Source: Gordonibacter massiliensis (ex Traore et al. 2017)
GTDB taxonomy: Bacteria; Actinomycetota; Coriobacteriia; Coriobacteriales; Eggerthellaceae
Length of the DNA stretch: 64,000 nucleotides
Direction: 5' to 3'
Assembly (NCBI GenBank): GCA_900170005.1
Contig: LT827128.1
Location: 124,001 to 188,000, forward strand
Both the position numbers and the translations under genes were made by a program. This document shows, piece by piece, positions 60,845 through 64,000 of this stretch. Every line of letters begins with the position of its first letter. Position 1 is the stretch's first letter. The notes beneath the pieces were generated by a model. The model searched no databases and was not told where the DNA came from. It saw only the letters and a list, made by a program, of their open reading frames with translations.

Positions 60845-62176
60845 CTACGCCTCGCGCAGTGCGACGTCGATGAGGTAGCCGCCGCTCTCCTCGGTCTCGT
60901 ACACCAGATAGCACGTCATCGGGCGCACGGGTTCGCCGTCGGCCCGTTTCGCCGCGCGCGCCGTCTCCAGGTAGCGCGGCGGAAACGCGATCGACTGCTC
61001 GTCGGCATCCTCCATGAAGTCCGCGCAGCCCGCGGCCTCGAGCGCGCGGCGCGCGGCCTCGCGGTCGGGTCCGAACACCTTGGCCGTTTTCAGGAAGAAG
61101 TCGCCCTCGTCGAACGCGACGCAGGGATGCGCGTGGGCGGCGCGCTCGTTCTTCTGCCGGATCTCGCTGCGATGCTTGTTCTCGAGCGAGCAGTAGTGCA
61201 TGCCGAACGTCAGGCCCTCGTCGAGCGCCCACAGCATGAGCTCGAGCACGAGCTCCTCGCTGCCCGCCACGGCCAGCCCTCCCGAGTAGCCGTAGTCGTA
61301 CATCACCTCGAACGGCGGGTTCTTCAACGTGAAGCCGCGCCGGGAGAACTCGTCCCAGTTGCAGAAGGGGAAGCAGAACTCCAGCAGGTTGATGCCGTCG
61401 ATGCCCACCTCCTCGAATCGGCGGAACAGCTGCCGCATGTGCTCCTTGGCGCCGGGGATGACCGGCATCTCCACCATGACGGAGGGGATGTGGCGGCGGG
61501 CCAGCTCAATCGCGGCGATCACGCGCTCCTGCTGCTCGGGCTCGTCGTCGTCCTTCACGCTGAAGCGGATCTCGTCCAGCCCCGCATCGCGCAGGCGCGC
61601 CGCGCTCTCCTCGGTCAGGAGGTCGCCCGAGGTGTACAGGCGCTTGTGGGCGCTCGGCCACAGCTCGCCCGCACGCTCGAGGAAGCGCAGGGCGTTCTCG
61701 AGGTCGAGCAGCGGCTCGCCCCCGGTGAGGCCCACGCAGGCCAGCGTGTCGTTCTCGGCCGCCGCGCGCTCCAGGCTCTCCTCCCACGGGCATCCTTCGC
61801 GGAAGAACGTGTCGTAGTCGGGCTGGTTGTGGTTGAAGCAGAAGTAGCAGTCTCGGTGGCATTTGAATGTGGTGGAGAACGTCTCCGACCCGCGGTTGCC
61901 CGTGCACTCTACGCAGGCGGGGGAGAGGTGCCCCGTGCTCAGGCTGGCTCCCGCGTTGCGCACGGCCACGCCGCGCGCCGCCAGCTCCGCCCGCAGCTCG
62001 GCGCGGCGCACGGCGCCTTCGCCGGGTTCCGCGAATACGAGCCCCTTGTCCTCGAGCGCCTTCACATAGCGCTCCCCAACCTCAGCGTACCCCGCGAGGG
62101 CCGCGTCCAACGCCTCGTTGCCCACCTGTGCTCCGTTCCATATGATCTTGCCGGTTGCGTTCTTCTTGCCGTCCAT
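60845..62176 (-). CDS. Radical SAM protein
   Basis: 443 aa, convergent with the MoxR-methyltransferase gene (31 bases between stops). The cluster motif is CHRDCYFC (CxxxCxxC, about residues 116-123), with a GGEP motif (LTGGEPLLDLE). Two further Cys pairs (PACVECTGN before the core, FCFPFC after) could bind another cluster or zinc. The C-terminal domain lacks a recognisable SPASM pattern. It generates a 5'-deoxyadenosyl radical; substrate unknown, and context suggests a peptide or a protein of the cassette. ATG 62176 (MDGKKNATG) is the best start, but its ribosome site is weak. 62177-62395 is non-coding. Confidence 0.85.
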   Translation of the reverse strand: MDGKKNATGKIIWNGAQVGNEALDAALAGYAEVGERYVKALEDKGLVFAEPGEGAVRRAELRAELAARGVAVRNAGASLSTGHLSPACVECTGNRGSETFSTTFKCHRDCYFCFNHNQPDYDTFFREGCPWEESLERAAAENDTLACVGLTGGEPLLDLENALRFLERAGELWPSAHKRLYTSGDLLTEESAARLRDAGLDEIRFSVKDDDEPEQQERVIAAIELARRHIPSVMVEMPVIPGAKEHMRQLFRRFEEVGIDGINLLEFCFPFCNWDEFSRRGFTLKNPPFEVMYDYGYSGGLAVAGSEELVLELMLWALDEGLTFGMHYCSLENKHRSEIRQKNERAAHAHPCVAFDEGDFFLKTAKVFGPDREAARRALEAAGCADFMEDADEQSIAFPPRYLETARAAKRADGEPVRPMTCYLVYETEESGGYLIDVALREA

Positions 62177-62395
62177 TATAAGGTGTCGCGCCCCGCCCCG
62201 CTCCGGCAATCCCGCAGGAGAAGACCGCCGGCCTTGCGCTTAGCGTTATCCCGGAAACGAGTTGCAGTCTCCCTGCGCATTCAACGCAAGCTCGGCTGCG
62301 GAATCCAGTGATCTCCCGCAGTCTAACCCTTTGCGCCGCCTCGGCGTCTTCCTGCGTTCGCCGCGTATTTGGGCGCATTCGACAGCATATTCCCT

Positions 62396-62444
62396 CTCCG
62401 CTGTTAAACCAGCATCGACATGCACCCGGCCGGGTTGTCATCCT
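62396..62444. repeat. Left part of host palindromic repeat, interrupted by IS110
   Basis: CTCCGCTGTTAAACCAGCAT through GGGTTGTCATCCT matches 5600-5648 almost base for base and then breaks off at the IS boundary. The continuation is at 63783. Confidence 0.9.
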
Positions 62445-62459
62445 ATGGGACAATAGATG

Positions 62460-62680
62460 CGCTTTCCGATGATGAGGAGCGTCATTGGAAGAGAAGCCCC
62501 GCCCTGCCGGCCGACCCGTTGTCATCCAGGCCCTCGGTGCCTTCGCTCAGGCTCGTCGCCGGCAGGCGGGGCTTCGCCGTGAAAACCGCGCGGGGGCCTT
62601 CGGGGATGACTTGATAGGAGCCCGTCGGGGGGCGCCCGACATGCCATAGGATCGTCTCGCCCGGAAGCCTTCCCGCGCAA
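62460..62680 (+). ncRNA. Putative IS110 bridge RNA with readable target and donor guides
   Basis: Two large stem-loops. Loop 1: a 17-bp stem (62494-62511 with 62558-62574, one bulged C) encloses GTTGTCATCC (62518-62527), identical to the left target, and GCCTTCGCTCAGG (62539-62551), complementary to the right target CCTGAGCGGAGGC with one G-U pair. Loop 2: a stem (62589-62604 with 62660-62677, bulged) encloses ATAGGAGC (62614-62621), identical to the IS right end at 63773-63780, and CCATAG (62644-62649), complementary to the IS left end CTATGG (62443-62448). This order (target loop then donor loop, upstream of the transposase) is that of the IS621 bridge RNA. RNA ends are estimated. Confidence 0.82.
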
Positions 62681-62701
62681 CCCTTTCGGGAGGAATCCAT
62701 T

Positions 62702-63754
62702 ATGGCAGACGGATGCAGGGTTGTCACAGGGGGCGTCGACACGCACAAGGACGCCCACGCGGCAGCGGTTCTGGACGCCGCGGGCGCGCTGCTCGGCGCG
62801 CGGCCGTTCCCCGCCGACGCCGGGGGCTACGCCTCGATGCTCGCGTGGATGCGCGGGTTCGGGGAGGTCTCGGCCGTCGGCGTCGAGGGGACGGGAGGCT
62901 ACGGGGCGGGGCTCGCCCGCGCGCTCGCGCTCGCAGGCGTTCCCGTCCTCGAGGTCGTCTCGCCCGACCGCTCCGAGCGGCGCCGCCGCGGCAAGGACGA
63001 CGGGTTCGACGCCGTCCAGGCGGCGCGCGCGGCGCTCGCGGGGGCCCGCTGCGCGCCGGCCAAGTCGCGGGGCCTCGAGGCCGAGGCCCTGGGCGCGCTG
63101 GAGGCAGCCTACGAGGGCGCCGTGAAGGCGAGGACGGCGGCGCTGAACGCGCTGCAGGCCCGGGTCGTCTCCCTGCCCGAGGGCATGCGCGCGCCGCTTC
63201 GGGGCATGGGGTCCTCCGAGCTCGCCCGCGCCTGCGCCTCCATGCGCCCGGGCGCGGGCGCGACGCCCGAGGCGTCCCTGCGCGCAGCCCTCCGCTCGCT
63301 CGCGCGCCGGGCGCTCGCGCTGGAGAAGGAGGCCGGGGACCTGGAGGCGAGGATCGACGCGCTCACGGAGAAGCTCGTCCCCTCGGTGCGGGCGCTCGTC
63401 GGCGCCGGCCCGCACGTCGCCGCGAGGCTCCTGCTCGCGGCGGGCGCGAACGTCTCCCGCCTGCGCTCGGAGGCGTCGTTCTCCATGCTGTGCGGGGCGA
63501 GCCCCGTCCCCGCCTCGAGCGGCAGGACCAGCCGCCACCGGCTCAGCCGGGGCGGGGACAGGCGGGCCAACTCGGCGCTCTACACCATGGCCATCACCCG
63601 CATGGCCCACGACGAGAGGACCCGCGCCTACGTCGCGCGCAGGATGTCCGAGGGCAAGACGAAGAGGGAGGCGATACGCTGCCTCAAGCGCTACATCGCC
63701 CGCGAAGCCTACCATGCCATCGTGCGGGACATGGAGGCCCCGGGGATGGCGTGA
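62702..63754 (+). CDS. IS110-family transposase (bridge-RNA recombinase type)
   Basis: 350 aa. The N-terminal RuvC-like DEDD domain shows GGVDTHKDAH (first Asp), VEGTGGYG (Glu) and RGKDDGFDAVQAARAA (Asp pair). A coiled-coil stretch (about 200-225) precedes the C-terminal Transposase_20 domain with LCGASPVPASSGRTSRHRLS and GGDRRANSALY, which carries the candidate catalytic Ser. Intact, with GGGAGGAAT before ATG 62702, so the element may be active. Confidence 0.95.
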   Translation: MADGCRVVTGGVDTHKDAHAAAVLDAAGALLGARPFPADAGGYASMLAWMRGFGEVSAVGVEGTGGYGAGLARALALAGVPVLEVVSPDRSERRRRGKDDGFDAVQAARAALAGARCAPAKSRGLEAEALGALEAAYEGAVKARTAALNALQARVVSLPEGMRAPLRGMGSSELARACASMRPGAGATPEASLRAALRSLARRALALEKEAGDLEARIDALTEKLVPSVRALVGAGPHVAARLLLAAGANVSRLRSEASFSMLCGASPVPASSGRTSRHRLSRGGDRRANSALYTMAITRMAHDERTRAYVARRMSEGKTKREAIRCLKRYIAREAYHAIVRDMEAPGMA

Positions 63755-63782
63755 GAAAGCCCTCTTGACAACATAGGAGCGT

Positions 63783-63941
63783 CTGAGCGGAGGCGGCGCG
63801 AGCCGCCGGAGTCGAAGGATCCCGCGCGGCGACAGCCGAAGCGCTTTCGGTTGGCACCGCGCGGGATCCTTCGGCTCGCTCCGCTCGCTCAGGATGACAA
63901 CGCGCCGGCTTGCATAATGTCAATGCTGGTTTAACGGCGGA
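63783..63941. repeat. Right part of host palindromic repeat, interrupted by IS110
   Basis: CTGAGCGGAGGCGGCGCGAG onward matches 5647 onward of the intact copy and ends with AATGTCAATGCTGGTTTAAC. This copy is shorter because it lacks the GACAGTCCACCGGACTGTC block. 63942-64000 shows only the start of another GC-rich hairpin (CCCCCG...CGGGGGC) at the window edge. Confidence 0.9.
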
Positions 63942-64000
63942 ATTCTCTCGCTTTGCACAAAAATCACCGATGTCCCCCGCTCGAAGCGGGCTCCGGGGGC

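What the first reader, a model, noticed from the sequence alone, without database searches (positions are those of the whole stretch)
62445..63784. IS110 element whose bridge RNA guides can be read against its own target and ends
Seen: the left non-coding end folds into two guide-like internal loops. The first holds GTTGTCATCC and GCCTTCGCTCAGG, matching the left and (as complement) right side of the actual insertion target, GTTGTCATC-CT-GAGCGGAGGC. The second holds ATAGGAGC and CCATAG, matching the element's right end and (as complement) left end around the same CT core. Known: IS621 and other IS110 elements use a bridge RNA with target- and donor-binding loops and a CT core. Inference: this is a bridge-RNA system from a high-GC actinobacterium, complete and probably active, with about 10-13 nt target-guide matches, a potential new orthologue.
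Basis: partly seen in the sequence, partly recalled or inferred. Interest (0 to 1): 0.87.

Follow-up and report, generated by a model that had tools for sequence, protein, structure and literature searches.

The report
RNA-guided IS110 jumping element
This is a small bacterial jumping gene that carries its own guide RNA and inserts into a short hairpin repeat that offers about 200 sites in its host genome; the mechanism is already known from related elements, and this is a clean new example of it.

Summary
The finding is real and read correctly in outline. Window 62444-63783 is an intact 1340-bp IS110-group insertion sequence. Its genome (same family as Adlercreutzia) holds five full copies, four identical and one with a single mismatch, plus one decayed left end. 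All five sit at TGTCATCC|TGAGCG in a hairpin repeat; the 13-mer GTCATCCTGAGCG occurs 195 more times. A covariance model built from 30 relatives, window left out, hits the window once (62494-62684, E 1.5e-7). Across 45 loci both target guides covary with insertion sites (0 of 20000 permutations); wrong-strand controls do not. Donor guides and 'handshake' bases covary too. Corrections: part of the 13-nt right guide (GCCTT) is scaffold shared with relatives; aligned to relatives, the exchange point lies one base left of the CT core (target CC, donor TC), though CT is not excluded; several guide matches are not significant singly. Activity is inferred from near-identical copies; no transcript was tested. 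Verdict: a new member of a known kind (IS621/ISEc21 bridge-RNA systems). Less ordinary: relatives have different target (AC) and donor (TC) cores, each suiting the guide it meets after strand exchange.

The parts
   Evidence: five copies with the same ends at one target sequence; register from covariance-model alignment
62434..62443 (+). left half of the target, GTTGTCATCC, ending in target core CC
63784..63793 (+). right half of the target, TGAGCGGAGG
63784..63901 (.). remainder of the hairpin repeat into which the element inserted; the second arm GCTCAGGATGACAAC faces back
   Evidence: 13-mer GTCATCCTGAGCG 108+87 times in the genome, reversed control 0
62494..62684 (+). bridge RNA core (target-binding and donor-binding stems)
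   Evidence: covariance model R1 built without the window, 40.9 bits, E 1.5e-7
62463..62491 (+). 5' stem-loop of the RNA (predicted)
   Evidence: centroid of the single-sequence fold; not covered by R1
62518..62527 (+). left target guide GTTGTCATCC
   Evidence: 10 of 10 identical to the left target in 3 copies, 9 of 10 in 2; guide covaries with target in relatives
62544..62551 (+). right target guide CGCTCA plus core-pairing GG
   Evidence: guide covaries with target in relatives
62552..62552 (+). target-loop handshake base C, can pair donor base G 63781
   Evidence: the corresponding base pairs donor base 7 in 57 of 58 relatives scored
62614..62621 (+). left donor guide ATAGGAGC
   Evidence: identical to right end 63773-63780; same arrangement in 79 of 102 loci examined, window included
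62644..62650 (+). right donor guide CCATA plus core-pairing GG
   Evidence: complements left end TATGG and core CC
62651..62652 (+). donor-loop handshake bases AT, complement the target bases AT just left of the core
   Evidence: target position 7 pairs in 35 of 41 relatives scored
62702..63754 (+). recombinase gene, 350 aa, DEDD (D13 E62 D100 D103) and SSG motif at 272-274
   Evidence: PF01548 and PF02371 above cut-off; residues
63765..63770 (+). -35 box TTGACA in the right end
   Evidence: joined to the -10 in the circular form with 18-bp spacing
62449..62454 (+). -10-like GACAAT in the left end
   Evidence: 4 of 6 consensus bases
63773..63783 (+). left donor ATAGGAGC, donor base 7 (G) and donor core TC

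Best explanation
An intact IS110-group insertion sequence with a bridge RNA, working like IS621 and ISEc21, in an Eggerthellaceae genome. The element excises as a circle (inferred); joining the ends creates a sigma-70-like promoter TTGACA-18-GACAAT (seen in the sequence) that would transcribe a bridge RNA from the left end (inferred). Loop 1 pairs with the two strands of a hairpin-repeat target, GTTGTCATCC | TGAGCG; loop 2 pairs with the element's own joined ends. Recombinase dimers (inferred from IS621) cut and exchange top strands just after the core, with handshake bases of each loop pairing the incoming partner strand. The repeat supplies about 200 target sites.
For: Pfam DEDD_Tnp_IS110 and Transposase_20. 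Five copies, four identical over 1340 bp and one with one mismatch, all at the same target sequence with no duplication. Covariance model from 30 relatives without the window: one hit in the 64 kb at E up to 10; in the 3.95-Mb genome only the five copies at E up to 1, 150 of 2714 first-look candidates having been scored. Cross-locus test on 45 loci: left target vs loop direct, own 7.18 vs other 5.64; right target vs loop reverse-complement, own 6.78 vs 5.21; 0 of 20000 permutations each; wrong-strand controls 14817 and 16050 of 20000. Left donor 8-mer shared between RNA and right end in 79 of 102 loci, in eight versions. Handshake base vs donor base 7: 57 of 58 Watson-Crick. Summed window guides 0 of 5000 shuffles. 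Junction promoter. The 58% relative L008/L038 (Adlercreutzia sp. ZJ473) has the same kind of target, a changed left end TATATAAC and a correspondingly changed donor guide CATATAGG (sequences, compared by eye).
Against: No transcript, circle or movement was observed. R1 scores the window only moderately (40.9 bits) and L008 weakly (22.3 bits). Some guide matches are not significant singly. Own pairing is best or tied-best in only 17 of 45 loci for each side; for the window's right target another locus's loop matched 8 nt against its own 7. 23 of 102 loci gave no donor 8-mer of the searched form, L008 among them (7-nt match only). Relatives share ancestry, so permutation counts are not independent events, and near-duplicates were not removed. 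No close relative of this IS at a different target was found, so retargeting within the immediate lineage is not shown.
Confidence: 0.95

Rival explanations
1. The loop-1 resemblance is a captured or degenerate copy of the abundant hairpin repeat inside the element, and the protein alone recognises the repeat.
For: The repeat is common (195 unoccupied 13-mers) and the loop halves resemble its arms.
Against: The two loop segments occupy the positions where relatives carry guides for other targets, and the order and strand sense are those of guides.
Confidence: 0.03
2. A bridge-RNA element that is now immobile; the five copies spread in the past or by recombination.
For: A decayed left-end remnant shows long residence of the lineage; no movement seen.
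Against: Four copies identical over 1340 bp and one differing at one base, at five separate places with different sequence beyond the repeat; open reading frame with the expected catalytic residues.
Confidence: 0.12
3. The core is CT as in IS621, not CC/TC.
For: CT is identical at both junctions and in the unoccupied repeat, and IS621 has a CT core (PMC11208160, passages).
Against: Alignment to 30 relatives puts the exchange one base earlier: the dinucleotide after the right-end 8-mer and one base is TC in 78 of 79 loci, window included; in that register the 10-nt left guide fits to its last base and handshake base C pairs donor G.
Confidence: 0.25

Closest known systems
ISEc21 and ISMch6 (IS110 family, seekRNA; PMC11187229, abstract and ISEc21 section read)
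   Same: Upstream non-coding RNA, circular intermediate with a junction promoter, target matched on both strands, no target duplication; one plasmid relative of the window protein at 50% identity is annotated ISMch6 family, a lead rather than a test of kinship.
   Different: ISEc21 targets IS3-family transposase genes; this one targets a hairpin repeat. RNA size and activity untested here.
IS621 (PMC11208160, sections 5, 6, 12 and passages; PMC11208158, passages)
   Same: DEDD plus Tnp domains, bridge RNA in the left end, two loops, junction promoter, handshake guides; IS110 elements inserting into REP sequences are mentioned there.
   Different: Protein only distantly similar (33 bits to 8wt6); different donor (ATAGGAGC type); register suggests CC/TC rather than CT core.
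ISPpu9, ISPpu10, ISPa11 and other IS in REP sequences (PMC1525189, abstract read)
   Same: Specific insertion into repetitive extragenic palindromes.
   Different: Pseudomonas elements and REPs; the repeat here is a different sequence.
Adlercreutzia sp. ZJ473 relative (L008 = L038)
   Same: 58% protein identity, same kind of hairpin target, same guide layout.
   Different: Left end and donor guides differ in step; right-junction dinucleotide TT.

Membership tests
IS110 family, IS110 group | DEDD RuvC-like and Transposase_20 domains | tested here: met
   PF01548 70.3 bits, PF02371 59.1 bits, both above cut-off
IS110 family, IS110 group | catalytic D, E, D, D and serine | tested here: met
   D13, E62, D100, D103 and SS at 272-273; D13, E62, D103 and S272 invariant in 9 sequences, D100 not listed as invariant; which serine is catalytic is not settled
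IS110 family, IS110 group | long left end with RNA, short right end | tested here: met
   about 257 nt before and 30 nt after the gene
IS110 family, IS110 group | scarless insertion at one specific target | tested here: met
   5 of 5 copies
bridge-RNA system | conserved two-loop RNA structure | tested here: met
   model R1 without the window, E 1.5e-7
bridge-RNA system | loop 1 pairs target, loop 2 pairs donor ends, with covariation | tested here: met
bridge-RNA system | identical core dinucleotide in target and donor (CT in IS621) | tested here: inconclusive
   CT parse fits; relatives' register gives CC/TC
bridge-RNA system | promoter formed by joining the ends | tested here: met
   TTGACA-18-GACAAT across the junction, sequence only
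bridge-RNA system | transcribed RNA bound by the recombinase; RNA-directed recombination | not testable with these tools
   needs small-RNA sequencing and recombination assays
IS1111 group | RNA in the right end | tested here: not met
   right end about 30 nt; the R1 hit lies in the left end
Rfam families | match above gathering score | tested here: not met
   13 matches at E up to 1 in 62000-64000, all below gathering score, none to a bridge-RNA family

The most novel reading that the evidence does not exclude
Among the relatives of this element the natural target and donor cores differ at their first base (target AC, donor TC), and the 3' guide halves of both loops, with the adjacent handshake base, are complementary to the strand each loop meets after exchange, not before. 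The bridge RNA would then encode the product and give insertion a built-in direction; the window element (CC/TC, with GG in both loops) would be a variant of this design.
Probability: 0.4. Interest if true: 0.55.

Novelty: new member of a known kind. Interest (0 to 1): 0.36.

Why it matters
It adds a fully readable bridge-RNA system from the Eggerthellaceae, with a natural target present at about 200 sites, so that insertion specificity can be scored within its own genome. The comparison also shows natural handshake pairing (57 of 58 relatives scored) and unequal cores in relatives, which can be tested directly in existing bridge-recombinase assays and may bear on why insertion would be favoured over excision (inference).

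Tried and rejected
Rfam search: only sub-threshold matches. Near-identical DNA on plasmids: none. Phage records: one partial 34% match; IMG/VR: 2 relatives. Single-sequence folding was weak evidence. Deciding from open frames whether the five sites are intergenic failed because the high-GC flanks are open in several frames; no claim is made. The idea that the 9-nt match of the 5' hairpin to the right end (AGGAGCGTC) is a second donor guide was not kept: L008 lacks it and a 10-nt gap removes it in the remnant. Species was not determined; only the family kinship with Adlercreutzia is used.

Rows dropped before counts: 23 of 102 loci without a donor 8-mer of the searched form (the form was restricted, so the 8-mer counts are conditional); 27 of 79 without a left-end/donor-guide match of 7 or more nt and 1 near a contig edge, then 6 of 51 as near-duplicates or with short flanks. 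For the handshake test, 58 of the 78 relatives with a donor 8-mer had a unique loop motif (which required GA) and a TC end, and 41 had an AC/GT pair with at least 5 further pairs; near-duplicates were kept there. Alignment A2 used 30 of 35 eligible loci; 1 of those 30 could not be scored for the left dinucleotide.

Full report
What is there. The window holds a 350-aa gene at 62702-63754 with both IS110-family domains, preceded by about 257 non-coding nucleotides and followed by about 30. The host genome (3.95 Mb, one contig) has five full copies: L002 (the window), L001, L003, L004 and L005. Four are identical over 1340 bp and L003 has one mismatch. A sixth place is a decayed left end, 77% identical to nucleotides 1-79. 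The genome shares a family with G029, whose relative L008 lies in the same stretch as L038, Adlercreutzia sp. ZJ473, Eggerthellaceae.

Target. All five copies lie between TGTCATCC and TGAGCG with no duplicated bases. Left targets are GCTGTCATCC, CTTGTCATCC and three times GTTGTCATCC; right targets are TGAGCGAAGC (2) and TGAGCGGAGG (3). The 13-mer GTCATCCTGAGCG occurs 108 + 87 more times in the genome, with 0 for the reversed control; GTTGTCATCCTGAGCG occurs 27 + 25 times. These count sites, not hairpins, since a hairpin can offer one in each arm. In the window copy the repeat continues as a hairpin whose other arm ends GCTCAGGATGACAAC.

Is it more than chance? Against 5000 dinucleotide shuffles of the RNA region, the summed length of the four best guide matches is 32, against a mean of 22.2 and a maximum of 30. 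Singly, the left target guide is rare (4 of 5000); the right target match (1529 of 5000) and right donor match (1200 of 5000) are not. The best match to the right end in that test was 9 nt in the 5' hairpin (18 of 5000), not the 8-nt match in loop 2; with 8 the sum is 31. The single-sequence fold is only mildly better than shuffles (z -1.79).

Relatives. With loci from the family and class searches and IMG/VR I examined 102 loci. In 79 of them, window included, the same 8-mer stands in the upstream RNA region and near the stop codon: ATAGGAGC 50, AGAAGGGC 16, ATAGGGGC 5, ATAGAAGC 3, AGGAGAGC 2, and one each of three others (the form searched was restricted). This is the left donor guide and its donor.

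Structure. Thirty relatives, window excluded, gave an alignment with two internal loops closed by conserved stems; 11 of 22 predicted pairs have at least one sequence with both sides changed. The covariance model made from it finds one place in the 64-kb window, 62494-62684, 40.9 bits, E 1.5e-7, and in the whole genome only the five copies at E up to 1 (150 of 2714 first-look candidates scored). Of 19 further sources, one of them the window's own copy L002, all 19 carried a match upstream of the gene, from 142.9 bits down to 22.3 bits (E 0.0016) for L008; L127 had a second, weak match (E 0.81). In the model alignment the window's GACCC-GTTGTCATCC and UGCCUU-CGCUCA-GG-C-UCGUCG fall on the relatives' left guide and right guide columns.

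Covariation with targets. On 45 loci, boundaries being set by the donor guide and not by the target guide, the left flank matches its own loop better than others' (mean 7.18 vs 5.64) and the right flank's complement likewise (6.78 vs 5.21); 0 of 20000 permutations reach either value. Two wrong-strand controls are flat (14817 and 16050 of 20000). Own pairing is top or tied in 17 of 45 loci for each side; for the window it is top on the left (10 vs 8) but not on the right (7 vs 8). Relatives share ancestry, so these counts show association, not a number of events.

Handshake bases. The IS621 structure paper (passages read) describes bases next to the right guides that pair with the incoming strand. 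In relatives the base after the target-loop core pairs donor base 7 in 57 of 58 (A-T 36, G-C 15, T-A 6, one mismatch; permutation mean 27.7, 0 of 20000). The base after the donor-loop core pairs target base 7 in 35 of 41 (mean 27.1, 0 of 20000), target base 6 in 10 of 41 (mean 4.1, 5 of 20000), and target base 5 shows nothing (6 of 41, mean 7.0) (near-duplicates kept). In the window the target-loop base C can pair donor G, and donor-loop bases AT complement target bases AT; the next donor-loop base C does not pair.

Register and core. But 78 of 79 loci have TC after the right-end 8-mer and one base, window included, and 27 of 29 scorable relatives have AC at the left; in 30 of 30 aligned relatives the target loop has GA, and in 28 of 30 the donor loop has GT, at the core columns. 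In a search of 4 genomes for the unoccupied L122-type target, the two matches, L137 (exact) and L136 (one mismatch), both read AC. So relatives have target core AC and donor core TC. Placed in this register the window has target core CC and donor core TC, and its left guide fits to the last base. I prefer this register (about three to one), but sequence alone cannot separate it from CT. L008 has TT at the right junction.

Mechanism. Shown here: intact gene, conserved RNA architecture, guide-target and guide-donor complementarity, repeated scarless insertion, and a promoter-like TTGACA-18-GACAAT that spans the joined ends. Inferred from IS621 and ISEc21 (PMC11208160: sections 5, 6 and 12 and passages read; PMC11208158: passages read; PMC11187229: abstract and ISEc21 section read): circular intermediate, RNA transcription, RNA-protein complex, serine-mediated exchange. 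Nothing shows present activity beyond the near-identity of copies.

What it is like and what is known. It works like, and by the features tested belongs with, IS110-group bridge-RNA elements. One 50% plasmid relative is annotated ISMch6 family, which ties it loosely to the ISEc21/ISMch6 branch; no tree was built. The solved IS621 protein is a distant relative (33 bits). Insertion of IS elements into palindromic repeats has been in print since 2006 (PMC1525189, abstract read). Two papers in the library hold both 'Eggerthella' and 'IS110', neither about this from the listing. I found no report of this element or of unequal cores, but only through the searches, whose listings I did not open except for the four papers named; most subscription papers and preprints are not held.

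Verdict. The unequal cores with product-encoding guides in relatives are the part worth a specialist's time.

Noticed in passing
relatives in alignment A2 (30 loci of L037-L121); L136, L137 (unoccupied sites): Relatives have target core AC and donor core TC, with loop core bases GA (30 of 30) and GT (28 of 30) that suit the post-exchange partner.
   Followed up: partly
window 62475-62483 (in the 5' hairpin): A 9-nt match AGGAGCGTC to the element's right end, longer than the loop-2 donor guide match; absent in L008 and removed by a gap in the remnant L129.
   Followed up: partly
L129 (G000:C1:1463251-1463319, minus strand): A decayed left end of a related IS near an intact hairpin repeat, showing old residence of this lineage.
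   Followed up: partly
L009, L013, L014, L015 flanks: By eye, several Eggerthellaceae relatives sit in genes whose translated flanks look like IS3-type transposases, as reported for ISEc21.
   Followed up: no
L068, L121, L122 flanks; L137: Another group of relatives also inserts into a hairpin-like sequence (GGATCAACCTGACTCGCTTCGCTCGCAGGTTATCC in L137).
   Followed up: partly
window 63784-63901 and genome-wide: Hairpin repeat with 195 intact 13-bp sites in 3.95 Mb; its own origin was not studied.
   Followed up: no
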